DNA of 64,000 nucleotides from Xenorhabdus bovienii SS-2004 (lineage in GTDB: Bacteria > Pseudomonadota > Gammaproteobacteria > Enterobacterales > Enterobacteriaceae), in assembly GCF_000027225.1 (NCBI RefSeq), contig NC_013892.1, positions 310,001-374,000 of the forward strand, read 5' to 3'. The translations under genes were made by a program, and so were the position numbers. Under the pieces are notes generated by a model that was not told the DNA's origin, did no database searches, and saw only the letters and a list, made by a program, of their open reading frames with translations. Numbering within the stretch: position 1 is the first letter of the stretch; each line of letters opens with the position of its first letter. Below, in pieces: positions 1 through 16,183 of the stretch.

Positions 1-288
1 GTCCGGACGGCCGGTGAATGGCTGATCGTCGGCCTGTTGCCGGATGTGTGTAAAACTCCGATGGGCGCATCAACCCCGCCGATCCCCTATCCGGTGGTCG
101 CCAAACTGGCCGACAGTTCCGCACCGGAAATGTTGTGGAAAGCCTTTGTTATACAGGGCTTGAAGCTGATATCTTTGCTCGGGAGTCAACTGTCGGTACT
201 GTCTGGTTTGTTTATGCATATCAGGCTACTATGCGGCAGGAAAATGAGGGTAACAACGGGTGTAAAATGTCCACGTCACGTCAGTTAG
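1..288 (+). pseudogene. PAAR-like (DUF4150-type) protein fragment, cut by the window edge
   Basis: The frame is open from base 1 to a stop at 286-288. Its first ~45 residues carry PDVCKTPMG followed by IPYPVVAKL, which resembles the conserved core of the PAAR-like DUF4150 domain found on type VI secretion spike tips and toxin N termini. After about base 130 the resemblance ends and the reading becomes low-complexity and hydrophobic, then runs close to a tRNA promoter. I read this as the end of a truncated gene. The GC-rich first 130 bases contrast with the AT-rich DNA that follows. The upstream part lies outside the window, so a longer decayed gene is possible. Family assignment is by eye and moderate. 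Confidence 0.45.
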
Positions 289-330
289 CATGTATTTTGA
301 ACGTTTGGTATTGGGTTGTGTGCAAAGAGC

Positions 331-359
331 TTGCCATCTTCTCCAAACAAGTTCATAAT
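331..359 (+). promoter_or_regulatory. stable-RNA promoter of tRNA-Gly copy 1
   Basis: TTGCCA (331-336) and CATAAT (354-359) are separated by 17 bases and followed by a GC-rich discriminator (GGCGCC), the usual form of a stringently controlled sigma-70 promoter. The same arrangement recurs at 13792-13820 and 14593-14621. The tRNA begins about 95 bases downstream, leaving a processed 5' leader. Confidence 0.75.
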
Positions 360-459
360 GGCGCCCATCTTGGTACGTAAATATATAAAACTCCTTTAAA
401 TCAAATGGTTGTAGGATGTTCGTATCTAGAAATTAAGGCTGACAGTAGTCATCAGCAAT

Positions 460-535
<76 letters not shown>

Positions 536-577
536 AATTCAGGATTGTAGATTTTTATGAAAGTCTGCAAGCCACAG

Positions 578-602
578 AAAAAAGGACCGAAAGGTCCTTT
601 TT
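578..602 (+). terminator. intrinsic terminator of tRNA-Gly copy 1
   Basis: AAAAAGGACC, a GAAA loop, and GGTCCTTTTT form a perfect hairpin whose right arm supplies the U-tract. It lies 43 bases past the tRNA end. Confidence 0.85.
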
Positions 603-714
603 ACGTTCCAGTGATAATGACCAAAATCCATTCTCATCCAGCGCTTTTTAGTCGGTCGTTAATAACCCCCGGCCTGCGTTTACCCGAACCTTTCGGTTAT
701 CTAGGGTAAAGTCA

Positions 715-1359
715 CTAGATATCCGGCTGATTGTTTGCTGGAAAGTTGAGACCATTCTCGATAATGAGAAATACTTCATCAAGAACATCTGAGTAACGCA
801 TAGAAGAGTGTTTTTTCCGCTTCCAAACGTCATATGTAGCCCAATGCGCATAATCTAAAACGCCGGCTAAGATGCCTGGTCTAATATCTATTTTAGGGTC
901 GGTTCCCATACGTTGAGCGATTAATGAAATGATAGGGGGTTTCCGATCCTCTCCGCGCTGAAGATTTTTTGCCCGAACTAAAGGATGGTTCCTTATCAAG
1001 TCTTGAAGGGTCATGAAACAGTTTGTATTAAAGCCATAAGAACCTCCTTCACATTTTCTCATAATTTCGACAGCGGTATGCCGTAATGCTGATAACGCGG
1101 GTTCATGAGGTGGACGGCGGATGAGCGCGGCAATAAAGTCTTTGTGTTCTGCCTCTTGGTAGTCAAGGACAACATCTTCCTTTGAGGAAAAATATCGAAA
1201 AAAAGTGCGGGTAGAAACGTCAACTTTTTCAGTGATATCTTCTACTCGAGTTTCATCAAATCCCTTAATAGCAAAAAGTTCGTAAGATGTCTTAATTAGG
1301 GCATCCCTCAGCATAAGCTTCTTCCGCTCACGGCGGCCAACTTTTTCTCTATCTGTCAC
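715..1359 (-). CDS. TetR/AcrR-family transcriptional regulator
   Basis: A 214-residue TetR-type repressor. The N-terminal helix-turn-helix is clear, with the recognition helix in the stretch VSTRTFFRYFSSKEDVV (compare the usual TGTFFRYFPSKEDV). The C-terminal ligand-binding part is divergent, as usual. I chose the GTG at 1359 because AGGAGG sits 10 bases upstream; the ATG at 1476 would add 39 residues unlike the family and would overlap the operator palindromes. It is divergent from the NRPS gene, and the shared intergenic DNA holds three inverted repeats, so it probably represses the biosynthetic genes and itself. The inducing ligand is unknown and could be the pathway product or an intermediate. 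Confidence 0.85.
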   Translation of the reverse strand: MTDREKVGRRERKKLMLRDALIKTSYELFAIKGFDETRVEDITEKVDVSTRTFFRYFSSKEDVVLDYQEAEHKDFIAALIRRPPHEPALSALRHTAVEIMRKCEGGSYGFNTNCFMTLQDLIRNHPLVRAKNLQRGEDRKPPIISLIAQRMGTDPKIDIRPGILAGVLDYAHWATYDVWKRKKHSSMRYSDVLDEVFLIIENGLNFPANNQPDI

Positions 1360-1463
1360 GCGCCTGTTTCCTCCTGTCTGGAATAAGTGATCGGTGTTTG
1401 AGCCTCCATTATCGCATAAAAGGACACTTATGTAATAGTTAACTAATGATACTATCAGTAAAA

Positions 1464-1525
1464 TGTCATTTGACACAATATGTCACGCGGTGACATATTG
1501 TCGTTAGATGACATATTATGTCATC
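1464..1525. promoter_or_regulatory. operator cluster between the TetR gene and pxaA
   Basis: Three inverted repeats share TGTCA/TGACA half-sites. They are TGTCA-TT-TGACA at 1464-1475, a perfect 11-bp-arm repeat (CAATATGTCAC, 3-base centre) at 1476-1500, and a perfect 9-bp-arm palindrome (GATGACATA, 1-base centre) at 1507-1525. Their symmetry and place between divergent genes are typical of TetR-family autoregulated operators. The right-hand palindrome covers an ATG at 1518 in the NRPS frame, which argues that this ATG is in untranslated leader. Confidence 0.75.
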
Positions 1526-1667
1526 TGAAATAATTTTTTCGAATATTAAGAGCCGAGATGGAGCGGTTTGGCTTGGTTCAATCAAGGGGACAGCTTCAGC
1601 CCAGAAATACTCGGTTTGTGTCGTTATTCGTAGAGCTAATGTCATTAGTCTAAATGGAGTTCAAGCT

Positions 1668-4600
1668 ATGAGTATTGCTACCGATATTGGAGAACCGACT
1701 TCGTACGAAAGGGATTTATGGGTTGAGGAGCTACATGATCCGCACTGTCATCAGTTCACAGTGGCTCTTAGTGAATTGTTACCCAGGTCTATCGATCTTG
1801 TAAATCTGAAGGGGGTTGCTGAACAAGTTCTGGAGTCGGAGCAAGCTTCCCACAAGTCTTTTCACGAGCAAGAGGGACATCTGGTTCTGAAGAAAGCTCC
1901 TGTTGTGGTTTGTGCCGAGTTATATGAATTCAAGAATGAAGACGACTTTGCCTTATTCTTCAATGAATGGTCTCGTAAGATTTGGGATCTTTCTGTTTCA
2001 CCCTTGGTCGAGATTGCGATAGGCCAAACAGATCAAGCTACTATATTAATGGTACGTGCTCATCACATCGTTGCTGACGGTTGGGGTCTGAATCTGTTGT
2101 CCAAGAAAATACTAGGTGCTTATGCAGATAATCATTTAGGTCTAAATGAACAACTTAAAGGGGTGAAACGTTACGCGACAAAATATCCAACCCTGCAAGG
2201 CAGTAAACTTGATGAGGCAATCCACGACGTCGTCGTGAAAATCGCTGATACTGATCCCGTGTTATTTCCAAAATCTGGAGCGGCTCTTTCGACATCCCCC
2301 AGCTATATCAGACCATTCAAAATATCAGCGCACGAAGTTGCTCATGGTATTGAAAATGGTTTTACTCCTTTTTTGGCTGTTTCAACGGCTCTGGCAGTTC
2401 TGCTGTCAAATGCATACGGAAGCGAGAAATTTTTCATTGGGGTGCCGTTTCTTAACAGAACCGATGCAGAAATTACGTCAGTCAGTCACCGGGCTAATAT
2501 TCTTCCCGTGAAAGTCGAGGTATTACCTCAAAATACACTCAGAGCAATTTACTCGCAGATCAAAGATTTTATCGTCTTTCTGAAAGACAAAGAATCGGTT
2601 CCGTTAGGGGGTATTATTTCGGCTCTGGCAAGTTCCTCTCGTCAACTTTTTGATGTAACAATGTCCTATCTGCGTTATCCAGAATGGGGGGCAATTGCTG
2701 GATTTGAAGAAAAAACCCAGAATATTGCGCACATGCATACTCAGGATGCGATAGCGATTCATCTGTACACTTATGGCAATAATGCAGATGTTTGGGGAGA
2801 TGTGTGTCTGAATAGCTCAGTATTTGACACTGAGGACTCAGCGAATGCATTCTTAGATACATTCATCCATCTTATCAATAATTTTGGTAATAATGTTGAT
2901 AAGCATGTGTCGGAAGTCAACCTGCTGACATCTAAGCAAATGGAGCAGCTTCGACAGTATGAGAATGGGCCAACTAAGCAATACAGCGTGAATGAAACCG
3001 TTGTTTCGCTCTTTGAGGCTAAAGCTGAACAATTTCCTGAAAATATCGCTCTTCGAGATCAAATTGGCACATCGCTTTCTTATTCTCAATTAAATGCATG
3101 GTCATCCACCATTGCCGCTGCTTTAGAAGGACGGGGAATCGGCCAGGGGGATATTGTGGCGGTGTCAGTCGAGCGATCGCCAGAGATGTTGGCTGCAATA
3201 TTTGGTGTCCTCAAAACTGGGGCGGCATATTTACCCATTGATAGCGACTATCCCGAAGATCGTATTCAATATATGCTTAACGACAGCAACGCCAAGTTAG
3301 TCATTTCTAATCTACCCCACGTTATGAAATCTGATGATCCTCGTTTGTTCCGTCTGGACGCTCTGCCAACTGAGCTACCTTCTCATCATCAATACAGAAG
3401 CAAAGCTCAGCCTCATGAACCCGCATATGTGATCTATACATCAGGTTCTACTGGCCGCCCCAAGGGTGTCATTGTCGAGCATCACTCAGTGGTTAATCGT
3501 TTAGAGTGGATGCAGGAAATACATCCGTTAACCAGTGACGATGTGATCCTCCAGAAAACGTCGATATCATTTGACGTTTCTGTGTGGGAGCTTTTTTGGT
3601 GGGCGATGACGGGAGCTTCTGTCGCACTCCTGAAACAAGGTGCACAACGCGATCCCAGAGAATTGATCCAGACAATTTCTACACTCGGGGTAACGGTAGC
3701 GCATTTTGTGCCGTCAATGTTTGAACCCTATGTGCAAACTTTGACTGATGATAGACAGTCTCTTTTATCGGTTAGCAGTCTGAAATGCCTATTTACAAGT
3801 GGTGAAGCGTTAACCCCTGCTGTCGTGAATAAATACAGGAAGCTTTTCGGTCGCGATACCCGTCCACCAAGGCTAATTAATTTATATGGCCCGACGGAGG
3901 CAACGGTTGACGTAACCTACTATGAATTAAATCTGGAACAGGATTCGGATATCAACGCAGTACCAATCGGTTTTCCGATCAACAATACCTCAGTGAGAAT
4001 AGCCTCATTGCATGGGGTCAGGCAGCCTATAGGTATATCTGGAGAACTACAGATTGGCGGTGTGCAATTAGCGCGAGGTTATTTGAATCGCCCCGAGCTG
4101 ACGGCAGAACGTTTTATTATCGATCAGAATGACAGTTGCAGTCGCTGGTACCGAACGGGTGATCTCGCGGCTTGGGCTGAAGATGGATCCATCCTTTACC
4201 TCGGAAGGATGGATGGCCAAGTGAAGATACGCGGTAATCGCATAGAGCTTGGTGAAATCAAAAACGCCTTACTTAACCTGCCAGAGGTGCTGAACGCGGA
4301 GGTTATCGTTGAAGATGATGCTCGGGGAAAACACCTGATTGCAGTCTATGTAGGCCGACAAGACTTGAATGAGCGTGATATTCGCGCAAAGCTTGGGAAG
4401 CAGCTTCCTTCCTTCATGGTTCCTGCAAGATTTGTCCGACTGGGGGGCATTCCCCTGACACCTAATGGAAAATTTGATCGCGCCAGTGCTCTCAGAGAGG
4501 TCAGTGGAAATAAAGCATCTCCTCAGACAGTAAAACTTGATGAATCCGAAACGATTGTTGCCAAGATATGGGAGAAAGTACTCGGTCGGTCAAACATTGG

Positions 4601-7600
4601 TGCAGATGACGACTTCTATACGCTTGGTGGCGATTCCATCCTGATGTTGAAAGTGAGATCAGAACTGGAAAGTCACGGGTATGACGTTGGCTTATCCGAT
4701 CTGGCGCAGTATACGACAGTATGTAGCTTGGGAAATGTCCTCGAAAGTGTGTCACGTGTTCTCAGTAGCCCGAAAGAAGCCCTTCCTCCTTTTGCTCTCA
4801 TAAGTGCAACCGACCAAAAGATGCTGAGTTCAGTATACGATGATGCTTACCCCGTATCTCAATTACAACTTGGTTTGCTTTTCCATAGTCGTGAGATGGA
4901 AGGTGCGAGAACTTATAAAGATGTATTCCGATATACTTTAAAGTCGGCGTGGAATGAAGCCGCATTCAGATCTGCTTTGCAAGGATTGGTTCGTAGGCAC
5001 CCCGCATTACGCACAGTTTTTAACCTTAGTGACTATCATTTACCCCTTCAGCTAATCAGACCCGAGATTCTAATTGATGATGTTTTATCAATTAAAACGC
5101 CTGATGTGGTTGAGTATGAGCATACAGTTCTTGCTCATATGGATAAGTGGTCACGGTATAATTATTCGTTCTTATCGGGACCACTTTTCCACGTAGCGAT
5201 ATTTGCTAATAGTGAATCAAACTATATCGACTTAGTTTTCAGCTTTCATCATGCAATTCTTGATGGAGGAAGCGTTGCAAACCTGATACGTGAGCTTCTT
5301 TTGTCCTATTCTCAGGGGAATGATGGCGCTAATCTCGGTTACCCTGAAGACGAATTGCCGAATCCGTCAATTTTTGTCCAAAACGAAATAGAAACCCTTG
5401 AAGCAAGTGAGTCTAAGAATTACTGGAAAGAATACCTCTCTGGCGCGACGAATACATTGCCAATAGGCTTGGCTGGATATTCAACTGCTCCAGTGAAACG
5501 TATTTTTTCTTATCGTTTCCTAATAGATCCTGTACTTGATGTTGCACTTAATCAGCTGGCAAGAACTATTCGAGTCCCTATAAAGCACCTTTATCTTGCC
5601 GCTCATTGCACCACCATTGCGTTAATGAGTGGTAAAGAGGAGATCGTCACGGGTGTAGTGACACATACACGGCCGGAAATTAAGCACTCGGAGCGTATTC
5701 TGGGGCTATTTTTGAACACACTTCCTTTGAGAGTTGATATAAAAAATTGGAATTGGCTTCAGGTTGTTGAAGGGCTGTATCGAAATGAAAAAAGAAGTCA
5801 TAAACATCGGTGTTTTCCCTTAAGCCAAATCCAAGCTGACAATGAATTGCTCTCTGTCCAGACCGCTTTTAACTACGTACATTTTCATATATTGCAGGAT
5901 ATTTCTGCGAAGTCAGGTATTGAAATAGTCGCCTTTGATCCGAAGGAGGAAACAAATTTCGATATTCTGGTAAACGTAATGCGCGATGTTGATGGCGAAC
6001 GTACGAGTGTTCGGGTGGATCTCAATGGAAGCATTTATGCCAGAGAACAAGGGGCGGTTTTTTCCAGGCTCTTTAATCGTGTGTTAGAGCGAATAGCTTA
6101 TCAACCAGAATTACCCGTATCCCTCAGCCACTCGATTACTGAAGTTGGGTGCCTTGTGGAAAGGACATCGGATAAGGTATTTATTTCACTTCCAGCCATG
6201 ATTCGAAATAGCGTTCAACGTGATCCGGATGCAGTTGCCATCACGTATGATAACGTAGAGTGGAGCTATCAGCAGCTATGGGATGCGGCGACAGAGATTG
6301 CTTTTTTGCTGAGTGAACGAGGGGTCCATAAACAGGATGTGGTTGGAATTGCATTACCGAGGTCGTTTGAACAAATTGCAACTGTCTTGGCTATTCTGAG
6401 GATCGGCGCTATTTGCCTTCCAATCGACTTATCATACCCAGCCAGCCGAATCGAGCTGATATTGAAAATAGCAAATCCGGCCGTAGTTGTAACCGATCAT
6501 TCTATTACAGAGTTGCCCACAAGTGTGCGCATGCTTTTCCTTGAGCATGATTCAATCGCGGCAACTGCGGAAAGAGACGATGCGACGATAGATTCTGCTG
6601 ATGCGGCCTACATTCTATTTACTTCCGGCTCAACGGGTACGCCTAAAGGCGTGACGATGCTGCATAGGGGATTGACCAATCTTGTTGGCTGGCAAAATAA
6701 AATAAGTAGTGGCGCCAAGGTTACCTCTACACTCCAGTTTTCGCCTTTGAGTTTCGATGTTTCTTTCCAGGAAATACTCTCCACCCTCTCATCAGGTGCC
6801 ACGTTGCATCTGATTAGCGAGATGGAGCGTCGAGATCCGGTAGCTTTGGTCAGGCATCTTGATCGTAAAGGCGTTGAGCGGATATTCCTTCCGTACATCG
6901 CTTTGCAACAACTCGCTGAGACGGCCGTTATGCTGGAATTCTTTCCGAAGAAACTGCGGGTGATTGTCTCGTCCGGAGAGCAGTTGCGTGTCACCAAAGA
7001 GATACGGACGCTGGTCGATAATCTACCTGGCGGCATATTGGAAAACCAGTATGGCCCGACCGAGACTCATGTGGTGACAAGTTACACTATGAGCAGTGAT
7101 CCCAGCCAGTTCCCTGCACTTCCGCCGATTGGTATCCCGATCACGGGTGTAGGCATTGTGATCCTTGACGAGAGTTCAAATGTCGTTCCCGATGGGGTTC
7201 CTGGCGAAATCTGTGTGTTCGGAGACGCTTTGGCATCGGGATATTACCGTTCGCCGGAGGAAACCAAGAAAAAGTTTATTGCACACGCCGACGTACCAGG
7301 TGGGATGTTTTACCGGACGGGGGATATTGGCATCCGTTCAGCGTGCGGCGAGATTATCAGCCTTGGTCGCAAGGATACACTGGTCAAAGTTCGTGGCTAT
7401 AGAGTAGAACTCTCTGAAATCGAGTTAAAAATTCTCGAATTCTTTGAAAAAATTAAGAAAAATGTTGAAGTAGCGGTTGTCGCTCGGCCTCGTGACGATC
7501 TGGATTCATACTTGATCGCCTATCTGGTGGGTAAGGAAGATGGTATCGCGCTGGAGGAACTGAGGCAGTTTATCGGAGCTGAGTTACCCGCATATATGGT

Positions 7601-8822
7601 GCCGACACACATTACATGGATAAACGAGCTTCCCAAGACACCGAGTGGCAAGCGTGATGATGCGATGCTCCGGAAACTGGATATACAGCTTGTATCAGAA
7701 AAAAATTATCGTGGCCCAGCAGGCGAGTATGAAAGCAGACTTTGCGAGCTGACCGCAGAGCTCCTGAAGATCCCCGAAATAGCCCCTGAGCAGAGTATTT
7801 TTGATTGTGGTGCGACTTCTTTGACTGCAATGCGCATAGTGGTTCTTGTTGAGAAACTGTATGGCATTAACGTACCGCTTTCAGCATTTGTTAGCGCACC
7901 AACCATTGCGAAACTTGCCATGCTTATTCAAAACGGTGGTGGTCAGTTCAAATTTGACCCACTTGTTCCACTGCGCAAAGCAGGTAACAGCAGGCCACTC
8001 TTCCTGGTACATCCTATGGGAGGAAATATTCTGTCATATCTGCGAATGCTTCCGTACCTGCCATCTGATCAGCCACTTTATGCTCTTCAAGCATCGGGTG
8101 TGGATGCGGGCTCGTCACCAATAACGACTATTGAGGAGCAGGCTGCTTTTTACATTGAGGCGATCAAGAGAATTCAGCCGACGGGTCCTTATGTGATTGG
8201 TGGCTGGTCGTATGGTGGATTTATCGCCTTCGAAATGGCGAATCAGTTAATCCGATCAGGGGAAATGGTCTCTAATATTCTGATTCTTGATACGATGGCT
8301 CTGAGCTCACAGGCAAAAGGTCAGGCGAGCGATGATGCTTTGCTTAGTTGGTTCTTCTGGGAATTGCTGTGGACATCGAAGGGATCTTCGTTACCCGTTC
8401 ATGTTGTTCCTTCCTATATCGAAAGCTTGCAAGAGAAATTCGAGTACATCACTGATCATGCAACCCAGATAGGAGCGATCCCGGAAGGCAGCACAAAAGC
8501 AGTCATGCAGCGCCTTTTCGAGGTGTATAGTGCTAATTGGCAAGCCGCGGCTGAATACAACGCACAATGTCCGAATCTTGATGTGACGCTTATTCGCGCA
8601 AAGCAGCCTCTTCCTCAGATATTGCAAGAGATGCACAATACTATTCGTAGTGAATATCATGATCCTCTGAATGGCTGGGGTGGCAAGACGTCTGGCCGAG
8701 TGAACTTGATTGAAGTGGATGGCGATCATCTGACTATTATGGAAGAACCTTTCGTTGGGCCAATGGTGTCGGCAATTATTACTGAAATTAATAAAGTGAA
8801 AGGGGTGAATGCTAATGTCTAG
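1668..8822 (+). CDS. pxaA: two-module NRPS C-A-T-C-A-T-TE (pyrrolizixenamide synthetase PxaA)
   Basis: Nonribosomal peptide synthetase, about 2384 residues from the ATG at 1668. That start has GGAG 9 bases upstream and lies ~10 residues before the C1 motif; the frame also opens at 1518, inside an operator. Domains by base position: C1 ~1.7-2.95 kb (HHIVADG), A1 ~3.0-4.5 kb (YTSGSTGRPKG, YGPTEA, YRTGDLA), T1 ~4.63 kb (GGDSI), C2 ~4.85-6.1 kb (HHAILDG), A2 ~6.2-7.7 kb (FTSGSTGTPKG, YGPTET), T2 ~7.81 kb (GATSL), thioesterase ~7.97-8.8 kb (GWSYGG, GDH). The aligned specificity code of A1 is DVWHFSLVD plus K, the serine code of EntF. A2 reads DVQFVSQVV plus K, nearest to proline codes. A starter C domain acylating serine, a dehydrating second C domain and TE release match what is published for PxaA of Xenorhabdus. 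It shares an operon with the monooxygenase. The named product is inferred. Confidence 0.85.
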   Translation: MSIATDIGEPTSYERDLWVEELHDPHCHQFTVALSELLPRSIDLVNLKGVAEQVLESEQASHKSFHEQEGHLVLKKAPVVVCAELYEFKNEDDFALFFNEWSRKIWDLSVSPLVEIAIGQTDQATILMVRAHHIVADGWGLNLLSKKILGAYADNHLGLNEQLKGVKRYATKYPTLQGSKLDEAIHDVVVKIADTDPVLFPKSGAALSTSPSYIRPFKISAHEVAHGIENGFTPFLAVSTALAVLLSNAYGSEKFFIGVPFLNRTDAEITSVSHRANILPVKVEVLPQNTLRAIYSQIKDFIVFLKDKESVPLGGIISALASSSRQLFDVTMSYLRYPEWGAIAGFEEKTQNIAHMHTQDAIAIHLYTYGNNADVWGDVCLNSSVFDTEDSANAFLDTFIHLINNFGNNVDKHVSEVNLLTSKQMEQLRQYENGPTKQYSVNETVVSLFEAKAEQFPENIALRDQIGTSLSYSQLNAWSSTIAAALEGRGIGQGDIVAVSVERSPEMLAAIFGVLKTGAAYLPIDSDYPEDRIQYMLNDSNAKLVISNLPHVMKSDDPRLFRLDALPTELPSHHQYRSKAQPHEPAYVIYTSGSTGRPKGVIVEHHSVVNRLEWMQEIHPLTSDDVILQKTSISFDVSVWELFWWAMTGASVALLKQGAQRDPRELIQTISTLGVTVAHFVPSMFEPYVQTLTDDRQSLLSVSSLKCLFTSGEALTPAVVNKYRKLFGRDTRPPRLINLYGPTEATVDVTYYELNLEQDSDINAVPIGFPINNTSVRIASLHGVRQPIGISGELQIGGVQLARGYLNRPELTAERFIIDQNDSCSRWYRTGDLAAWAEDGSILYLGRMDGQVKIRGNRIELGEIKNALLNLPEVLNAEVIVEDDARGKHLIAVYVGRQDLNERDIRAKLGKQLPSFMVPARFVRLGGIPLTPNGKFDRASALREVSGNKASPQTVKLDESETIVAKIWEKVLGRSNIGADDDFYTLGGDSILMLKVRSELESHGYDVGLSDLAQYTTVCSLGNVLESVSRVLSSPKEALPPFALISATDQKMLSSVYDDAYPVSQLQLGLLFHSREMEGARTYKDVFRYTLKSAWNEAAFRSALQGLVRRHPALRTVFNLSDYHLPLQLIRPEILIDDVLSIKTPDVVEYEHTVLAHMDKWSRYNYSFLSGPLFHVAIFANSESNYIDLVFSFHHAILDGGSVANLIRELLLSYSQGNDGANLGYPEDELPNPSIFVQNEIETLEASESKNYWKEYLSGATNTLPIGLAGYSTAPVKRIFSYRFLIDPVLDVALNQLARTIRVPIKHLYLAAHCTTIALMSGKEEIVTGVVTHTRPEIKHSERILGLFLNTLPLRVDIKNWNWLQVVEGLYRNEKRSHKHRCFPLSQIQADNELLSVQTAFNYVHFHILQDISAKSGIEIVAFDPKEETNFDILVNVMRDVDGERTSVRVDLNGSIYAREQGAVFSRLFNRVLERIAYQPELPVSLSHSITEVGCLVERTSDKVFISLPAMIRNSVQRDPDAVAITYDNVEWSYQQLWDAATEIAFLLSERGVHKQDVVGIALPRSFEQIATVLAILRIGAICLPIDLSYPASRIELILKIANPAVVVTDHSITELPTSVRMLFLEHDSIAATAERDDATIDSADAAYILFTSGSTGTPKGVTMLHRGLTNLVGWQNKISSGAKVTSTLQFSPLSFDVSFQEILSTLSSGATLHLISEMERRDPVALVRHLDRKGVERIFLPYIALQQLAETAVMLEFFPKKLRVIVSSGEQLRVTKEIRTLVDNLPGGILENQYGPTETHVVTSYTMSSDPSQFPALPPIGIPITGVGIVILDESSNVVPDGVPGEICVFGDALASGYYRSPEETKKKFIAHADVPGGMFYRTGDIGIRSACGEIISLGRKDTLVKVRGYRVELSEIELKILEFFEKIKKNVEVAVVARPRDDLDSYLIAYLVGKEDGIALEELRQFIGAELPAYMVPTHITWINELPKTPSGKRDDAMLRKLDIQLVSEKNYRGPAGEYESRLCELTAELLKIPEIAPEQSIFDCGATSLTAMRIVVLVEKLYGINVPLSAFVSAPTIAKLAMLIQNGGGQFKFDPLVPLRKAGNSRPLFLVHPMGGNILSYLRMLPYLPSDQPLYALQASGVDAGSSPITTIEEQAAFYIEAIKRIQPTGPYVIGGWSYGGFIAFEMANQLIRSGEMVSNILILDTMALSSQAKGQASDDALLSWFFWELLWTSKGSSLPVHVVPSYIESLQEKFEYITDHATQIGAIPEGSTKAVMQRLFEVYSANWQAAAEYNAQCPNLDVTLIRAKQPLPQILQEMHNTIRSEYHDPLNGWGGKTSGRVNLIEVDGDHLTIMEEPFVGPMVSAIITEINKVKGVNANV

Positions 8823-9990
8823 AAAACCTTCTGCGCTCATCGTCGGTACGGGTATCGGTGGGTTGTCATGCGCGATCGCATTGAAAAAAATTGGTTGGTC
8901 TGTGCGTCTCTTTGAGAAGACGGACAGTTTACGAGCGACTGGATCGGGTTTATCGGTAATGTCAAACGCCAGTTCGGCGATGAAGAAGCTGCTTGATATC
9001 GACCTCGGGTTGAAGAATTATGGTGCTGAAGTTCGAAACTTTGAGATTCGACATAGCTCAGGATTGCTCTTGAAGCGCCTCCCTGTTCAAAAGATCTCTG
9101 ATGAGCAAGGCACTCCGAGTATTTGCATATCAAGGGAAAACCTCCAGAGAGCGTTGTTGGATCAGCTTGGCGATGCGGATATTAGTTTTGGTAAACGCGT
9201 AACTGGCTATAACGAAACGAGTGATGCTGTCCATATCAATTTCGAGGATGGCACTGTTTCATCGGGAGACATTATTGTCGGGGCTGATGGGTTTTATTCT
9301 GCAATTCGTGACGCGATCGGAACAGAATCTATTATTCAGGAAGCCGGTTATATTTGCTGGCTCGCCTTAGTTAAATACTCCCATCCCAAAATTACACCCG
9401 GCTACGTTGCCCATTATTGGGGGAGAGGGAAGCGTATGGGGATTGTAGATATCGGTGATGGCTGGGTGTATTGGTGGGGAACCGCGAATATGTCGAATGA
9501 TGACGCCAAAAGATGGAAAGGTACGAATAGGGATGTAGCTGAGTTTTATGCGGGTTGGCCGGATCTTGTTCAAGATATCATTAACTCAACTGACAGTGAA
9601 TCCATAATCACTGTAGACGCCAAAGATAGAACCTTCCCTGAACATTGGACAAAGGGACGAGTGACTCTTCTCGGTGATGCCGCTCATCCGATGCTAACCA
9701 GTCTCGGTCAAGGTGCTGGAATATCTATAGAAGATGCTGCGGTGCTGGGGTACGTGCTTAAAAATACTGAGGACTACCGTGTTGCGCTACGCCGATATGA
9801 AGCTATTCGGCAACCGCGTGCCCGTGCAATCGTCAACACCTCGCGATCTTTGAGTGATATTGAACAGCATGACCGATTTTTCCCTTGTTTAGAGCGAGAC
9901 GTTAGTATGTTGCTGACATCCAAAAAGTCCATGCGTAAACGGCTTCAGGATTCGCTGTTATTTGACGATCTCGCTATTCAAGCGCAATGA
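8815..9990 (+). CDS. pxaB: FAD-dependent monooxygenase (PxaB-type, pyrrolizidine-forming)
   Basis: Group A flavoprotein monooxygenase of about 391 residues. An N-terminal Rossmann motif GTGIGGLSCAIAL binds FAD, GADGFYSAIR is the DG motif, and GDAAHPMLTSLGQGAG is the GD motif contacting the FAD ribityl chain. The gene overlaps pxaA by 8 bases (ATG at 8815; another at 8809 is possible), so the two are translationally coupled. In the described pyrrolizixenamide and legonmycin pathways the partner enzyme performs a Baeyer-Villiger oxidation of the bicyclic NRPS product, followed by hydrolysis, decarboxylation and ring contraction to the pyrrolizidine. That role is inferred here from the operon and the NRPS architecture. 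Sequence alone would also allow an aromatic hydroxylase. Confidence 0.82.
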   Translation: MSRKPSALIVGTGIGGLSCAIALKKIGWSVRLFEKTDSLRATGSGLSVMSNASSAMKKLLDIDLGLKNYGAEVRNFEIRHSSGLLLKRLPVQKISDEQGTPSICISRENLQRALLDQLGDADISFGKRVTGYNETSDAVHINFEDGTVSSGDIIVGADGFYSAIRDAIGTESIIQEAGYICWLALVKYSHPKITPGYVAHYWGRGKRMGIVDIGDGWVYWWGTANMSNDDAKRWKGTNRDVAEFYAGWPDLVQDIINSTDSESIITVDAKDRTFPEHWTKGRVTLLGDAAHPMLTSLGQGAGISIEDAAVLGYVLKNTEDYRVALRRYEAIRQPRARAIVNTSRSLSDIEQHDRFFPCLERDVSMLLTSKKSMRKRLQDSLLFDDLAIQAQ

Positions 9991-10028
9991 ATGTGGTAGA
10001 AATATCCTTCAATTAACAGGGTGATGTC

Positions 10029-10128
10029 ATGTCAAAAAAAGCATACTGATAATGACGCATCATCTGGATTAAGCTAAACGGCTGTATGAAGACTCGCCAA
10101 CAGTGGCTTCTATGTTTTCGCAGCCGTT
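10029..10128 (+). other. structured spacer downstream of pxaB (hairpin, 6-codon ORF)
   Basis: Between the convergent pxaB and oxidoreductase genes, AACGGCTG (10077-10084) pairs perfectly with CAGCCGTT (10121-10128). Inside the loop a second hairpin (GCCA-ACAG-TGGC, 10096-10107) is flanked by GAAG/CTTC. There is no U-tract, so a plain intrinsic terminator is doubtful. A six-codon ORF, MSKKAY, runs 10029-10049 behind a GGTG. It may be a gene remnant. Confidence 0.35.
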
Positions 10129-10205
10129 CATTCATTAATAATATGGCAACCGCTTAACCTCACCGTACCCAAAATATTTTTTATCTGTGCTATCACTCTG
10201 TTTTT

Positions 10206-13200
10206 TTATAGCTTTTCCAGTAATGCCTCCTTACGCTCCATCATGTTTTTTATCGCTTTTTGCTTAACATGACCGAAGCCACGGACTTGATCGGGCAGCT
10301 CCGCGAGTTGCTGACAGATCGCTAAATTATCGCGGTTCAGTTTTTCTATCAGAAAATCAAGTAATCGCTCATATTCGAGCAGTAAATTTCTTTCCTGTCT
10401 GCGCTCTTCCTGATAGCCGAAGATATCGAACATAGTTCCACGAAGTGGCTTACATGCGGCAAGAACGCGGAAGATAGGGATGATCCATGTGCCATATTCT
10501 CGTTTTCCTCGCTCGCCTGTACGTGGATCTTTGCGATTGAAAAGGGGCAGGCTGAAGTGAAAGCGAATGTTATCCGTATTATCAAACTGTGAGCGGAGAT
10601 TTTCGAAAAAGTCGCTTTTGGCATAGAGGCGCGCGACTTCATATTCATCCTTATAAGCCATTAGTTTAAATAAATTTTCAGCGACCGCTTTGGCAATTTC
10701 TTCCGCATCAATTTGTTGCGTGACCAGTTGAATCTGAGCAACGCGACTGAGATAACGCTGTGCATATCCTTCATTCTGGTAATCAACCAAAAATTGATAT
10801 CGATGCATAATAAGATCATCCAGCGTCTTAATGCTTTCTTGCGGCTTGATGTGCAGGCGCTCATTCAGGATATCTGGCTGTACAGCAGCAATGCGACCGA
10901 TATGGAAAGCGCGTCGTGCACTGTCTGCGGCATTGCCCAGTGCTTGAATAGTATGGTCGATAGCAGAAAGCGTGATTGGAATCTTACCGAGCTGCCATGC
11001 ATAACCGATTAATACGATATTTGTTTGGTTTCGGTCACCGACCAGATCAGCGGCCATTATTTCGGCATCAATGGAATTTAATGTTTGGCAGTGTTGGTGA
11101 AGAGTCGTCATCATTTTGGGATGATCCAGATTCAGGGTGGGAGCCCGAAGCATAGTGCCGATTTGCGTTTCATGAGTATTGAGGACGCATTTCGTTGCAC
11201 TTTTTGACATCACTGTCAGTGAATTTTGTCCCGTTGCGGCCACTAAATCAGCCGCGATGATGAGATTAGCGCGCCCACGGTCAATTCTGACTTGATGTAG
11301 CTTATTCATATCATGGCATAGTCGGACATGGGTGATTGCTTCACCGCCTTTTTGTGCAAAACCCGTAAAATTGAGTAGACTGACGGAATAATTATCTGCT
11401 TCGGCCGCAATCGCCAGTAAATTCCCTGCGGTGACGATACCTGTACCACCTACGCCGACGAGCAGGATCTCATAAGGGTTATCGCTAATGATCAGTATTG
11501 GCTGGGGTAATTCACGGAGTAATTTGTCTAGATCGCCTTGCGGGATTATTTTACTGAGATCATGGCGTGGATTGGCATTTTCGACGGTGACAAAGCTGGG
11601 GCAAAACCCTTTCAGACAGGATAGATCGGAGTTGCAGACGTGTTGATCGATCTTGCGTTTAGTCCCCAGTGAGGTTTTGACCGGGATCACTGCGAGGCAA
11701 TTTGATTGTACCTGACAGTCACCACACCCCTCACAGACCAACTCGTTAATCACGGCGCGTCGTGTCGCTTTCGGCTCCAGACCCCGCTTTCTCTTACGGC
11801 GTAGTTCTGTGGCACAGGCCTGATCGTAGATAATTACGGTTACCCCCGCGATTTCTCGAAAACGTTTCTGCACCTCTTCGAGGTAATCACGTTGATAAAG
11901 CGTCACCTTAGCGGTTAGCAGGTTTTTATCCTGATATTTATCAATATCATCCGTAACAATAGCGACTTCTTTGACCCCTTCAGCCAGCATTAAGGCTACA
12001 ATCTGCGGTATGGTAAGATTACCATCCAGTGGCTGTCCTCCAGTCATGGCCACAGCCTGATTAAATAGCAATTTATAAGTAATGTGATTGCCTGCGGCTA
12101 TTGATTGGCGAATGGATAAATGGCCGGAATGGAAATAGGTCCCATCGCCTAAATTCTGAAAGAGATGGGGACGGTTAATAAAAGGTGAATGCCCGACCCA
12201 GTCGGCACCTTCCCCTCCCATTTGAACAAGACCAAATCCCGTATTACGATCCATCCAAGCCGCCATGACATGACACCCAATACCAATTTGGGCTTGGCTG
12301 CCTTCAGGTAAACGGGTTGATGTGCTATGGGGACACCCTGCGCAGAAATAAGGTGTGCGTTTGGGAAGCGTAAGATCGTGTGGTGTTGTTTTAGTTGCCC
12401 ATTCCAGAGGAACCGAGAGAAACAAATCGAGTTTGTTTAGCCATCCAGAAAGCAGGGGAGTAATCAATGAAGGACGTAACTCAATGTCTGCGGGTAAAAA
12501 TTGCTGGCCAAGATGATTGTGTTTGCCTATCAGCTTAATATTTTTCTGTGAATTAACCAGATGGCGTGCCAGCAGGATCTCGACAACAGCGTTCTTCTCC
12601 TCAATAACAAAAATATCAGTGACCTGTGAAGCAAGATCGCTGAGAAGCGGTGACAGAGGATAGACTAAGCGGACATGGACAAAAGCCACCCCTTGTTTGG
12701 CAAGTTGGGAAGGCGTTAAGCCTCCGGCACGTAAGGCTTCCAGCACATCTCGATGCGCTTTGCCAACGGTGACCAGCAGAGCACGCGGATGGGCGCACGG
12801 GGCAAGGAGTTGATCGATCGGATTAGCTCTGGCGAAGGCTTCAACGGCTTTAAGTTTATAGGCCAAGCGTTTCTCAATCTGTGGGCCGGGAAGATCCGGC
12901 CAACGCCAATGCAGCCCATCTGGGCCAGAATCGATTTCAGGTGTTTTATATTCAGGAAAGGGTTTGCTTTTTCTGATAGCACTACTTTCCACAACTTCAC
13001 TGATTGCTTTAAACCCGACCCAAGCCCCACTCGCGCGCGATGCCGCCCAGCCCCATAATCCTACATCGTGATAGTCAGAAACAGATGCTGGATGCAAAAT
13101 CGGCATACTCCAAGCCATTAAAACGAGATCAGATTGATGGGACATGGAGGAGGAGACACAACCGTGGTCATCACCGAGGATTACAAGTACGCCCCCGTGT

Positions 13201-13574
13201 GGTGAAGAGCCATAAGCGTTGCCATGCCTGAGCGCATCGCCAGAGCGATCCACTCCAGGTCCTTTGCCGTACCACATGCCAAAGACGCCGATAACATTCC
13301 GATCAGGATCGGATTCGACTTTTTGAGTACCGATAAGTGCAGTGGCGGCGAGATCTTCGTTGATAGCAGGTTGAAAGCGGATATTGGATTGAGCAAGTTC
13401 TTTACCATGCTGCCATAATGCCTGATCTAAACGGGCTAAGGGAGAGCCGCGATATCCAGCAACAAACCCCGCAGTGTTGAGATTATGGCTTTTATCCAGT
13501 TCAGCCTGAGCGAGTAAAAGCTCAGCAAGGGCATCAGTACCTGTGACAAATTTAGATGGATAATGTTGAGTCAT
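10206..13574 (-). CDS. indolepyruvate:ferredoxin oxidoreductase, single-chain (alpha-beta-gamma fusion)
   Basis: A 1122-residue fused 2-oxoacid:ferredoxin oxidoreductase, oxidatively decarboxylating indole-3-pyruvate and other aryl pyruvates to the aryl-acetyl-CoA with ferredoxin as acceptor. The N-terminal third is the pyrimidine-binding TPP domain (GYRGSPLARLD, GDDHGCVSSS). Mid-protein CAGCPHSTST and GMGGEGADW-like stretches mark the TPP pyrophosphate domain. Around residues 600-660 there are Cys clusters (CEGCGDCQVQSNC and CNSDLSCLKGFC) fit for an Fe-S cluster. Near residue 700 is the gamma domain (GVGGTGIVTAGNLLA, FAQKGGEAITHVRL), then a long C-terminal DUF6537-like extension. Length is close to the usual 1150-1190. 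It stands alone, convergent with pxaB, and there is no sign that it serves the NRPS pathway. Confidence 0.88.
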   Translation of the reverse strand: MTQHYPSKFVTGTDALAELLLAQAELDKSHNLNTAGFVAGYRGSPLARLDQALWQHGKELAQSNIRFQPAINEDLAATALIGTQKVESDPDRNVIGVFGMWYGKGPGVDRSGDALRHGNAYGSSPHGGVLVILGDDHGCVSSSMSHQSDLVLMAWSMPILHPASVSDYHDVGLWGWAASRASGAWVGFKAISEVVESSAIRKSKPFPEYKTPEIDSGPDGLHWRWPDLPGPQIEKRLAYKLKAVEAFARANPIDQLLAPCAHPRALLVTVGKAHRDVLEALRAGGLTPSQLAKQGVAFVHVRLVYPLSPLLSDLASQVTDIFVIEEKNAVVEILLARHLVNSQKNIKLIGKHNHLGQQFLPADIELRPSLITPLLSGWLNKLDLFLSVPLEWATKTTPHDLTLPKRTPYFCAGCPHSTSTRLPEGSQAQIGIGCHVMAAWMDRNTGFGLVQMGGEGADWVGHSPFINRPHLFQNLGDGTYFHSGHLSIRQSIAAGNHITYKLLFNQAVAMTGGQPLDGNLTIPQIVALMLAEGVKEVAIVTDDIDKYQDKNLLTAKVTLYQRDYLEEVQKRFREIAGVTVIIYDQACATELRRKRKRGLEPKATRRAVINELVCEGCGDCQVQSNCLAVIPVKTSLGTKRKIDQHVCNSDLSCLKGFCPSFVTVENANPRHDLSKIIPQGDLDKLLRELPQPILIISDNPYEILLVGVGGTGIVTAGNLLAIAAEADNYSVSLLNFTGFAQKGGEAITHVRLCHDMNKLHQVRIDRGRANLIIAADLVAATGQNSLTVMSKSATKCVLNTHETQIGTMLRAPTLNLDHPKMMTTLHQHCQTLNSIDAEIMAADLVGDRNQTNIVLIGYAWQLGKIPITLSAIDHTIQALGNAADSARRAFHIGRIAAVQPDILNERLHIKPQESIKTLDDLIMHRYQFLVDYQNEGYAQRYLSRVAQIQLVTQQIDAEEIAKAVAENLFKLMAYKDEYEVARLYAKSDFFENLRSQFDNTDNIRFHFSLPLFNRKDPRTGERGKREYGTWIIPIFRVLAACKPLRGTMFDIFGYQEERRQERNLLLEYERLLDFLIEKLNRDNLAICQQLAELPDQVRGFGHVKQKAIKNMMERKEALLEKL

Positions 13575-13791
13575 ACACTTGGCCCTTTTTGAGGAGCATT
13601 ATTGTCTAAGATACGACCAAAACTATCTCTAATCTATTGCCCTAAAATTATTCCGACAAGCACAAATCTTATTAGAGGTTAGTTGTATGTTTAGTGTTAA
13701 TTTTTAGAATCACAAATGTTTCTAAAATAGATGTGGACTCTCTTTCACGAGTGTTTTTTGAGCGCTTGGCATAAGAGTGGATGCAAAGGAC
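13575..13791. other. intergenic region, oxidoreductase start to tRNA-Gly copy 2 promoter
   Basis: AT-rich and without a credible gene. It should carry the promoter of the leftward oxidoreductase gene, but no convincing -35/-10 pair was picked out. A weak hairpin, ACTC-8-GAGT followed by GTTTTTT (13737-13759), could stop rightward transcription before the tRNA promoter. Confidence 0.4.
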
Positions 13792-13820
13792 TTGTCATCT
13801 TCTTTGAGCAAGTCCATAAT
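13792..13820 (+). promoter_or_regulatory. stable-RNA promoter of tRNA-Gly copy 2
   Basis: TTGTCA (13792-13797), a 17-base spacer and CATAAT (13815-13820), followed by the discriminator AGCGCC. The block from TGCAAAG through the -10 is closely similar to the one before copy 1, so promoter and tRNA were duplicated together as a unit. Confidence 0.78.
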
Positions 13821-13908
13821 AGCGCCTGTTCCTGATATGCAGATATAAAAATAGTATTATTTATCATAAGCATTCAGGCATTTCAGGCTAAATACAGCCA
13901 TAAGCGAC

Positions 13909-13984
<76 letters not shown>

Positions 13985-14180
13985 ATATCTTATCTATAAA
14001 CTTCTACTGATTTCTTGCATGTCTCTGAAATAATAGCCTGACCCATATTTCCTATCTCAACAAAGTTCATCGAAATTTAATAACGATTAATCCTGCTAAG
14101 ATTAGCAGCTATCTGATGATACCTTCTTATTATCTGGCAAGCCAAGCCTGTCGGAAAAGCGCCAACTATTCCGGCGCTGA

Positions 14181-14576
14181 CGGTCTGGGGCTAATCACCT
14201 CTCTGATTTTCATGAAATCCTGATATTTCAGCTAATTGTCTTTGACAAGACCATAAAGAAGCAGGTCAATATTCTGGATATTGGTCACGTTTTTCTGGTC
14301 GTTGGTCATTTTATGGCGTACACATATGTACGACCACTGCTCCAGACCGTCTACAAGTTCGATAATAGCTGGATTAATCCACTTTTGTTTGCCTACGGCC
14401 TTGCTGGAATAGCGGGGAATTTTCTTTCTGGCAGCGCCGCTACGAAACAACTTCGCTGGACTCTCGTGTTTATCACAATTGGCATAACTGCTGCAGTTCT
14501 CCTTTTTTCTCCTTTGGGGGGATCTATCGCAGGGAGTAACTACCTGATCCGTACCATCTATCACTACCATAAATAA
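14181..14576 (+). pseudogene. remnant of an MFS (sugar/drug efflux type) transporter
   Basis: The frame is open from just after a stop at 14178 to a stop at 14574-14576. It contains LVVGHFMAYTYVRPLLQ, then PLLFAYGLAGIAGNFLSG, then a hydrophobic segment. These are characteristic of the start of the C-terminal half of arabinose/sugar-efflux MFS permeases (TM7 with AYTYIRP, loop, TM8 and TM9). There is no start codon ahead of the homology, and only ~100 of the usual ~390 residues remain. It lies between tRNA-Gly copy 2 and an orphan tRNA-type promoter, so it is likely the remains of another insertion into the tRNA cluster. Confidence 0.6.
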
Positions 14577-14592
14577 ATTGTCGATAAAGCAC

Positions 14593-14621
14593 TTGCTATC
14601 CAGATACAACAAGTCCATAAT
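14593..14621 (+). promoter_or_regulatory. orphan tRNA-type promoter (third of the cluster, no tRNA behind it)
   Basis: TTGCTA (14593-14598), a 17-base spacer ending in AAGTC, CATAAT (14616-14621) and the discriminator GCCGCC reproduce the two tRNA-Gly promoters almost exactly. No cloverleaf follows before queG. It probably belonged to a third tRNA-Gly (the glyY counterpart). If still active it would transcribe the DnaA-box region. Confidence 0.6.
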
Positions 14622-14741
14622 GCCGCCTCATTTTTGAATAGGCAGAGGAAAATTTCTTCACCAGCGTCTAGAATGTGTGAGTGGATTCTGGTTTTATTGC
14701 TTATTTCTGATTCTTTTCCACTGAAATACAATTACTGTTTT

Positions 14742-14980
14742 TTATCCACAGTATTTAACCTTACTGCCATATTGACTTGTCTGACGATGCTCTATTTGCT
14801 GCACAGAGTTATCCACAGGCGAAATTTCTGTATCTGTATTTTTTGACCCATTATTTAAAATAATAAATCATATTTAACTTATTGATAAATTAAAATAATT
14901 TATTTCATTTAAAATGACATTGATTAATATTTAAACTTTATTTGTCTGTTGATCAACAAGGCATTTTTATTTTATTCACA
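14742..14980 (+). promoter_or_regulatory. datA: datA-like locus: three DnaA boxes and an IHF site
   Basis: Perfect DnaA boxes (TTATNCACA) lie at 14742-14750 and 14809-14817 (both TTATCCACA) and at 14972-14980 (TTATTCACA), all on the same strand. A perfect reverse IHF consensus (YAANNNNTTGATW) occupies 14875-14887, in a strongly AT-rich stretch between boxes 2 and 3. The locus is non-coding and lies between the tRNA-Gly cluster and queG. As I recall, that is where E. coli datA lies; there, DnaA boxes with bound IHF promote hydrolysis of DnaA-ATP and delay re-initiation. Function here is inferred from position and site layout. No gene is seen from 14622 to 15025. Confidence 0.7.
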
Positions 14981-15025
14981 AGGAAATAGACGGGTTTTTT
15001 GACAATAAATTCGACTGGTTAATTA

Positions 15026-16183
15026 TTAAGCATCTCTGGGTATTCCTTTGGTAATTGCCCGAATTAATCGCTTCTGCTGTGATGTTTGAACTTCAATCGT
15101 ATTGGCATTGCGGCGAGTTATTTGTTGATCGATGGCCCAGTGGATATGTTCATCCAGTACTTCACTTAAACCGATTCTTTTTTTCAGTGCCAGCACGATA
15201 TCATCCTGATAAAGAGCATTACCTAAAGCAACGGAAATATTGCGCAGCCAGCGTAAATAACCAATGCGGCGGATTGCTGATCCTTCCGTAATACGTAGAA
15301 ACTTTTCTTCGCTCCAACTGAATAAATCAAGTAATTTTGGCGTGTGCAGGGCAGCACGAGGGCTGAAATCTACTTCATCCGTTAATTGTGAAAAACGATT
15401 CCATGGGCAAATAAGCTGGCAATCGTCACAACCATAAATCCGGTTGCCCATTAACGGGCGCAATTCTTCAGGGATCACACCATCCAATTCAATGGTCAGG
15501 TAAGAAATACAGCGTCGGGCATCAATGGTATAAGGCTCAACAATGGCACCTGTTGGGCAGGTCGTCATACAGGCAACGCAACGCCCGCATTGCTCCTCTT
15601 GTGGGGCATCTATGGGAAGGGGAAGGTTAATCAACAATTCTCCGAGGAAAAACCATGAACCCGATTCTCGATTTAATATAAGTGAGTGTTTACCAACCCA
15701 GCCGAGACCAGCCTTGGCCGCCAAGGGACGCTCCATGATCGGGGCAGAATCGACAAAAGGCCGAAAATTCAGAGTTCCCTGATATTCATGAGCACTGCAA
15801 TAGTCTTGAATCTGTTCACCGAGTTTTTTGAGTCGCTGACGCAATAGCTTGTGGTAGTCTCTGCCCAGCGAATAGCGGCTGACATAACCTAATTCAGGAT
15901 TATTCAGTGTACTGGCAAAAGCTGCTTTGGCTGGCAGGTAATTCATGCGTACGCTGATGACCCGCAAGGTGTCAGGTAGTAGTTCATGGGGACGGGCGCG
16001 CATCATACCGTGACGAGCCATCCAATCCATTTCACCGTGGTATTGCTTATCAAGCCATTCCTGTAGTTTGGGTTCTTCTGCGGATAAATCGGTGTCACAG
16101 ATACCGACTTGTTGAAAGCCAAGGGAAAGGCTCCATTGTTTGATGTTTGTTGCCAGAAGATTCAGATCAAGAGGGGTTGCCAT
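15026..16183 (-). CDS. queG: epoxyqueuosine reductase QueG
   Basis: 385 residues (E. coli 379). It reduces epoxyqueuosine to queuosine in the wobble position of tRNAs reading NAY codons, using cobalamin and two [4Fe-4S] clusters. The ferredoxin-like motifs are visible at CGRCVACMTTCPTGAI and, after it, CDDCQLICPWNRF. A catalytic Asp region precedes them (FRPFVDSAPIMERPLA), and a C-terminal HEAT-like part follows. It is transcribed away from tsaE. In E. coli nnr lies next to it on the other strand, but here the space to tsaE is only 205 bases and nnr is missing. Confidence 0.96.
   Translation of the reverse strand: MATPLDLNLLATNIKQWSLSLGFQQVGICDTDLSAEEPKLQEWLDKQYHGEMDWMARHGMMRARPHELLPDTLRVISVRMNYLPAKAAFASTLNNPELGYVSRYSLGRDYHKLLRQRLKKLGEQIQDYCSAHEYQGTLNFRPFVDSAPIMERPLAAKAGLGWVGKHSLILNRESGSWFFLGELLINLPLPIDAPQEEQCGRCVACMTTCPTGAIVEPYTIDARRCISYLTIELDGVIPEELRPLMGNRIYGCDDCQLICPWNRFSQLTDEVDFSPRAALHTPKLLDLFSWSEEKFLRITEGSAIRRIGYLRWLRNISVALGNALYQDDIVLALKKRIGLSEVLDEHIHWAIDQQITRRNANTIEVQTSQQKRLIRAITKGIPRDA

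What the first reader, a model, noticed from the sequence alone, without database searches (positions are those of the whole stretch)
1464..9990. Pyrrolizixenamide-type locus: bimodular Ser-Pro NRPS plus FAD monooxygenase under a TetR repressor
C-A-T-C-A-T-TE with serine and proline-like codes, translationally coupled to a group A flavin monooxygenase, is the published architecture of PxaA/PxaB from Xenorhabdus (bacterial pyrrolizidine alkaloids) and of the legonmycin enzymes. The dedicated TetR gene and triple operator add a local control layer that I do not recall being described for pxa.
Basis: partly seen in the sequence, partly recalled or inferred. Interest (0 to 1): 0.72.

Follow-up and report, generated by a model that had tools for sequence, protein, structure and literature searches.

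The report
TetR-controlled Pxa-like alkaloid gene cluster
This is a small gene cluster, probably for an acylated bicyclic alkaloid, in an insect-killing Xenorhabdus bacterium; it is a cousin of the known pyrrolizixenamide genes and carries its own repressor gene, whose predicted DNA switch also turns up in front of other biosynthetic genes.

Summary
The anatomy is real: a divergent TetR gene, a bimodular C-A-T-C-A-T-TE NRPS (serine code, proline-like second code) and an overlapping flavin monooxygenase with the H/Y/W residues important in LgnC. "Pyrrolizixenamide-type" holds for the likely chemistry, not for orthology. Among 30 Xenorhabdus genomes there are two monooxygenase lineages: a common one (15 genomes; it holds X. 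szentirmaii, species of the MIBiG pyrrolizixenamide reference) and the window's (4 genomes; also Pseudomonas, Vibrio, Brenneria). X. hominickii has both. The window NRPS is 60-65% identical to its own lineage (95% to T228) but 43-45% to the common one. A related TetR accompanies 9 of 10 window-lineage loci and 0 of 15 common ones. The exact composite occurs in 8 of 9 genomes with the TetR and 2 of 37 without. In X. hominickii a second copy precedes the unlinked common pxa NRPS; in two Pseudomonas it lies beside a TetR relative that faces other genes. Product, DNA binding and repression are untested. An X. bovienii cluster, probably this one, is already in print as 43% similar to pyrrolizixenamide A.

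The parts
715..1359 (-). TetR-family regulator, 214 aa, divergent from the NRPS
1464..1475 (.). upstream palindrome TGTCA-N2-TGACA
   Evidence: also before the X. hominickii common pxa NRPS, not conserved in most relatives
1470..1499 (+). predicted promoter: -35 TTGACA (1470-1475), 18-nt spacer, -10 CATATT (1494-1499)
   Evidence: composite found in 9 of 10 lineage intergenic regions, 0 in 2000 shuffles; pattern fitted after inspection
1481..1495 (.). predicted TetR operator TGTC-N7-GACA inside the promoter spacer; lies in a 27-bp palindrome 1475-1501
1499..1513 (.). second TGTC-N7-GACA, not exact in T228
1506..1526 (.). third palindrome, 10-bp perfect arms
1668..8822 (+). bimodular NRPS, C-A-T-C-A-T-TE, about 2384 aa
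   Evidence: start
1695..2807 (+). starter C domain (approximate bounds set by me)
   Evidence: HHIVADG motif; 27-31% identical to common Xenorhabdus loci
3012..4517 (+). A1 domain, code DVWHFSLVDK (serine; code meaning recalled)
4830..6137 (+). C2 domain, HHAILDG
6195..7682 (+). A2 domain, code DVQFVSQVVK (proline-like; code meaning recalled)
7980..8762 (+). thioesterase domain, GWSYGG
8809..9990 (+). FAD monooxygenase, PxaB/BraC/LgnC-like, H202 Y221 W223
   Evidence: FAD_binding_3 88 bits; residues
460..535 (+). tRNA-Gly (GCC) at the left edge of the inserted stretch

Best explanation
A horizontally acquired, TetR-repressed two-enzyme pathway for an N-acylated bicyclic (pyrrolizidine-type) alkaloid, from a sister lineage of pxaAB. 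Inferred chemistry, from the characterised relatives: the starter C domain acylates Ser on module 1; Ser is dehydrated and joined to Pro or a Pro analogue; the TE releases an indolizidinone; the flavin enzyme ring-expands it, and hydrolysis and decarboxylation give the pyrrolizidine. Inferred control: a TetR dimer on TGTC-N7-GACA between the -35 and -10 boxes blocks RNA polymerase until a ligand (pathway product or an acyl-CoA) releases it. Shown here by sequence: anatomy, codes, active-site conservation, lineage split, conserved promoter-operator and its genome-wide tracking of the TetR, an insertion site that is uninterrupted in relatives. Not shown: product, DNA binding, repression, ligand.
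For: Domains and codes; H/Y/W conserved in 27 of 27 rows, three of them duplicates; lineage trees, NRPS support 1.0, monooxygenase 0.988 with metagenome protein P0015 included; TetR in 9 of 10 window-lineage loci and 0 of 15 common loci; composite promoter-operator exact in 8 of 9 TetR genomes and 2 of 37 others (Fisher p 1.5e-6); orn-tRNA-Gly-tRNA-Gly-oxidoreductase without the cluster in 15 of 30 genomes.
Against: No product or binding data. The first C domain is divergent (27-31% to common loci, 42-50% within the lineage outside T228), so the acyl group may differ. A2 code is not the textbook proline code (recalled). X. lircayensis keeps the enzymes without a TetR at E <= 1e-15. Two TetR-less Xenorhabdus genomes have an exact composite match, and the reversed control pattern has 7 matches in 30 genomes. 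Rows of the Fisher table are related genomes and part of them were used to draw the pattern.
Confidence: 0.75

Rival explanations
1. It is the ordinary pxaAB pathway, merely diverged, and makes pyrrolizixenamides.
For: Same architecture and catalytic residues; an X. bovienii cluster was annotated this way.
Against: 43-45% NRPS and 49-54% monooxygenase identity to the common loci; X. hominickii holds both; starter C domain 27-31% identical.
Confidence: 0.25
2. The monooxygenase stops at or diverts to a carbamate (brabantamide- or oxazepine-type) rather than a pyrrolizidine. For PxaB and BraC the outcome depends on enzyme and acyl chain.
For: PMC11177316 abstract: shared oxazepine-dione intermediate; PxaB makes the carbamate only with the brabantamide-type chain. 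The window's acyl chain is unknown.
Against: Window enzymes are closer to the common Xenorhabdus lineage than to the glycosyltransferase-linked Pseudomonas lineage (NRPS 43-45% against 31-32%); no glycosyltransferase ORF seen beside it.
Confidence: 0.2
3. The conserved motif is a promoter feature or the site of another regulator, not the TetR operator.
For: X. lircayensis keeps a degenerate site (TGTC-N7-GACA intact, composite not) without the TetR.
Against: Exact composite in 8 of 9 TetR genomes against 2 of 37 others, and beside the TetR relative in G565 and G491 where the neighbouring genes differ.
Confidence: 0.1

Closest known systems
pxaA/pxaB, pyrrolizixenamides (X. stockiae; MIBiG BGC0001873, X. 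szentirmaii)
   Same: Bimodular Ser/Pro-type NRPS plus overlapping monooxygenase; same catalytic residues in the common Xenorhabdus lineage
   Different: About 44% NRPS identity; no relative of this TetR in 15 of 15 common loci; different A2 pocket letters. The X. stockiae sequence itself was not seen; that it lies in the common lineage is inferred
braA-C, brabantamides (Pseudomonas)
   Same: Same NRPS architecture and homologous monooxygenase
   Different: Pseudomonas loci with an adjacent glycosyltransferase (10 of 14 lower-identity loci fetched; taken as bra-like by me) are 31-32% identical in the NRPS; no such gene beside the window cluster
lgnA-D, legonmycins (Streptomyces)
   Same: Monooxygenase residues H/Y/W; same kind of intermediate
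   Different: Split NRPS with separate A-T protein and LgnA thioesterase
MftR (TetR family, Mycobacterium)
   Different: 21% identity; different targets; ligand here unknown. NCBIfam MftR model 69 bits, below its 224.9 cut-off

Membership tests
pxaAB (pyrrolizixenamide) | C-A-T-C-A-T-TE NRPS with serine code in module 1 | tested here: met
pxaAB (pyrrolizixenamide) | proline-specific A2 | tested here: inconclusive
   DVQFVSQVVK here, DVQYISQVIK in 14 of 15 common loci; no assay
pxaAB (pyrrolizixenamide) | adjacent BVMO with the H/Y/W residues | tested here: met
pxaAB (pyrrolizixenamide) | orthology to the reference lineage | tested here: not met
   separate clade and both types in X. hominickii
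pxaAB (pyrrolizixenamide) | acyl pyrrolizidine product | not testable with these tools
   needs mass spectrometry
brabantamide cluster | glycosyltransferase gene beside the NRPS | tested here: not met
   ORFs of 1-16183; neighbours TetR, oxidoreductase, QueG
legonmycin cluster | split NRPS plus LgnA | tested here: not met
   single NRPS ORF; definition
azetidomonamide-type cluster | AZE synthase gene | not tested
   no such gene noticed among the ORFs of 1-16183; no search of the genome for it
C* dehydrating condensation domain | C2 groups with LgnD-C2 | not tested
   no LgnD sequence at hand
TetR repressor | TetR_N domain and TetR fold | tested here: met
TetR repressor | binds the palindrome and represses | not testable with these tools
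   only indirect: the site tracks the TetR across genomes

The most novel reading that the evidence does not exclude
A mobile repressor-operator cassette: one TetR subfamily with a composite promoter-operator (TTGAC-N6-TGTC-N7-GACA) travels among gammaproteobacteria attached to different biosynthetic or efflux genes, and its operator has been captured by a second, unlinked alkaloid cluster in X. hominickii, so that one repressor co-ordinates two homologous alkaloid pathways of different ancestry. The window cluster makes an undescribed acyl variant.
Probability: 0.45. Interest if true: 0.68.

Novelty: new variant of a known kind. Interest (0 to 1): 0.55.

Why it matters
It shows that 'pyrrolizixenamide-like' annotations in Xenorhabdus cover two lineages, which one genome can hold side by side. 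It gives a concrete predicted switch for a pathway family for which I found no local regulator in the papers searched, and a simple test: deleting one tetR in X. hominickii should raise both clusters.

Tried and rejected
Rejected: NRPS start 1518 and TetR start 1476. Rejected as part of the cluster: the 10206-13574 oxidoreductase, present in 30 of 30 Xenorhabdus genomes. The Pseudomonas loci carry SDR, aldehyde dehydrogenase, PPTase and MFS genes downstream (L012); the dehydrogenase was found at E <= 1e-20 in 4 of 8 genomes searched, the four Pseudomonas and none of the four Xenorhabdus. Led nowhere: plasmid search (745 records, all below 60% identity); order-wide search (1 of 394 sampled genomes, the window's own).

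Mistakes mended: my first composite pattern had a wrong spacing and matched 0 of 10; I corrected it after looking at the sequences, so that pattern is post hoc; G565 and G491 are sites not used to draw it. One search printed A1 with a wrong fourth letter; corrected. For the chance of a composite match before the 15 common NRPS genes, one search used 8 control matches and a factor of two; the control count is 7 and the corrected value is 0.00034. Rows dropped from the NRPS alignment (36 rows): L013 (NRPS split over frames), L036, L049, L050 (duplicates of L011, L010, L009), L081 and L094 (longer NRPS). The window-lineage node of the monooxygenase tree without metagenome protein P0015 has support of only 0.52; with it 0.988. 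The common loci lack a relative of this TetR (BLAST E <= 1e-5 among ORFs of at least 90 aa in 17-20 kb loci); an unrelated TetR-type gene does lie beside L048.

Recalled, from no call: A-domain pocket positions and the meaning of the codes, promoter hexamers, the names orn and braA. Papers: PMC11177316 (abstract, section 3, part 1 of section 4, passages), PMC11457151 (section 4, passages), PMC8748450, PMC11794875, PMC12377575, PMC13208338, PMC12383660, PMC10371910, PMC10892061 (passages), PMC7820566 and PMC8728441 (abstract and outline). 'No local regulator in print' rests only: one search matched any word beginning with tetr and is unspecific; the whole word TetR had 0 occurrences in six listed papers touching these pathways (PMC11457151, PMC11177316, PMC7820566, PMC12038845, PMC10880069, PMC11794875).

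Full report
WHAT IS THERE. The window lies in a 4,225,498-base single-contig genome, close to Xenorhabdus bovienii T228 (monooxygenase 97% identical). The locus holds a divergent TetR gene (715-1359, minus strand), a bimodular NRPS (1668-8822) and an overlapping flavin monooxygenase (8809-9990). Pfam gives two AMP-binding, two carrier and one thioesterase domain, and condensation matches of which the first domain is weak and split. The longest ORFs start too far upstream: T228 has a TGA inside the extra NRPS leader and homologues start at the inner Met; TetR relatives start at the inner GTG equivalent.

ENZYMES. The A1 code DVWHFSLVDK occurs in 24 of 36 aligned NRPSs and reads as serine (recalled). 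The A2 code is DVQFVSQVVK; the window lineage reads DVQF[VAG]SQV[VI]K, the common Xenorhabdus lineage DVQYISQVIK in 14 of 15, the glycosyltransferase-linked Pseudomonas lineage DVQF[NS]AHVVK. The monooxygenase has H202, Y221 and W223 at the spacing of LgnC H200/Y219/W221, conserved in 27 of 27 rows, three of them duplicates and none from Streptomyces or the glycosyltransferase-linked lineage; mutagenesis indicated that these residues matter in LgnC. PxaB and BraC act on the indolizinone made by the same kind of NRPS.

TWO LINEAGES. Of 30 Xenorhabdus genomes, 18 have a monooxygenase at E <= 1e-60: four have one at 74-100% identity (window, T228, X. lircayensis, X. hominickii), and 15 have one at 49-54%, X. 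hominickii being in both groups. The common kind includes X. szentirmaii and X. budapestensis proteins, the species of the MIBiG pyrrolizixenamide reference and a species reported with a 100% similar cluster (passages). NRPS identity to the window is 95% (T228) and 60-65% (seven other window-lineage loci), against 43-45% (15 common), 38% (L086, L092) and 31-32% (10 glycosyltransferase-linked); by domain, common loci show C1 27-31, A1 49-52, C2 38-41, A2 48-51, TE 56-61%. Both trees separate the lineages: NRPS support 1.0, monooxygenase 0.988 with metagenome protein P0015 included. Vibrio mimicus, V. spartinae, Brenneria and Pseudomonas proteins fall in the window lineage. X. hominickii G010 is flagged 7% contaminated, but a contig of 4,522,699 bases is given for both the X. 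hominickii common monooxygenase (P0027) and its TetR (P0129), which puts both on one chromosome if the two entries mean the same contig.

HORIZONTAL ORIGIN. In 15 of 30 genomes orn lies within the fetched flank and the order is orn, tRNA-Gly, tRNA-Gly, oxidoreductase. In the window and T228 the cluster lies between the second tRNA-Gly and the oxidoreductase, about 9.7 kb in the window. In the other 13 genomes orn is not within the 1.5 kb flank, so they neither support nor oppose. In X. hominickii and X. lircayensis the cluster is not next to the oxidoreductase.

THE SWITCH. A relative of the TetR is in 9 of 10 window-lineage loci (missing in X. lircayensis L010) and 0 of 15 common loci; genus-wide 3 of 30 genomes have it at E <= 1e-15. 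In 398 sampled Pseudomonas genomes six have it at E <= 1e-50; four of these are the four with a window-lineage monooxygenase. TGTC-N7-GACA is in 9 of 10 intergenic regions (shuffle mean 0.03) and the composite with -35 and -10 boxes in 9 of 10 (0 in 2000 shuffles); the miss is L016 in the first test (one base off) and L010 in the second. The exact pattern TTGACN6TGTCN7GACA occurs six times in 30 Xenorhabdus genomes (reversed-pattern control: seven): window, T228, X. hominickii twice, and two sites in genomes without the TetR. In 16 chosen Pseudomonas genomes it occurs five times (control: none), each time beside a gene for this TetR or its relative: three in window-lineage loci and two (G565, G491) beside a 57-61% relative without a window-lineage monooxygenase; G423 has the TetR and only an inexact site. 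Together 8 of 9 TetR genomes against 2 of 37 others (p = 1.5e-6; not corrected for relatedness, and the pattern was drawn from some of these loci).

OPERATOR CAPTURE. The second X. hominickii site lies 208-233 bases before the NRPS start of its common pxa cluster, on another contig. Of 15 common loci only this one has it; the best partial matches of the other 14 miss 4-6 of 14 fixed bases. From the control rate, 0.00034 matches would be expected in the 15 upstream stretches. It is the only common locus in a genome with the TetR.

STATUS. An X. bovienii MEL2.2 cluster is in print as 43% similar to pyrrolizixenamide A (passage); that it is this locus is inferred from the low similarity and low locus number. 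What is added here is the lineage split, the conserved switch and the second operator; all are predictions from sequence.

Noticed in passing
L037 5583-5612 (X. hominickii G010 C111): Full promoter-operator of the other cluster's TetR in front of the common-lineage pxa NRPS, the only one of 15 common loci to have it.
   Followed up: partly
L149 5775-16022 (Pseudomonas G565) and L150 13122-15926 (G491): A 57-61% relative of the TetR with the same composite site beside a phenazine-like set (isochorismatase, chorismate-binding, MFS, A-T-reductase, DAHP synthase) and beside an MFS gene.
   Followed up: partly
L012 11216-15909 and other Pseudomonas window-lineage loci: SDR, aldehyde dehydrogenase, PPTase and MFS genes follow the monooxygenase in Pseudomonas; X. 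hominickii has two SDR genes and a PapA-like gene; the window has none of these beside it.
   Followed up: partly
L086, L092 (Pseudomonas): A further bimodular NRPS-monooxygenase lineage with A2 code DMQLVSQQVK; a PapA-like acyltransferase was checked in L092 and a ketoacyl synthase III in L086.
   Followed up: no
L081, L094 (Pseudomonas G719, G565): Monooxygenase next to a longer NRPS of about 3540-3570 aa.
   Followed up: no
L013 2816-9980 (Pseudomonas cedrina): The NRPS is split over several reading frames, by sequencing error or decay.
   Followed up: no
   Followed up: no
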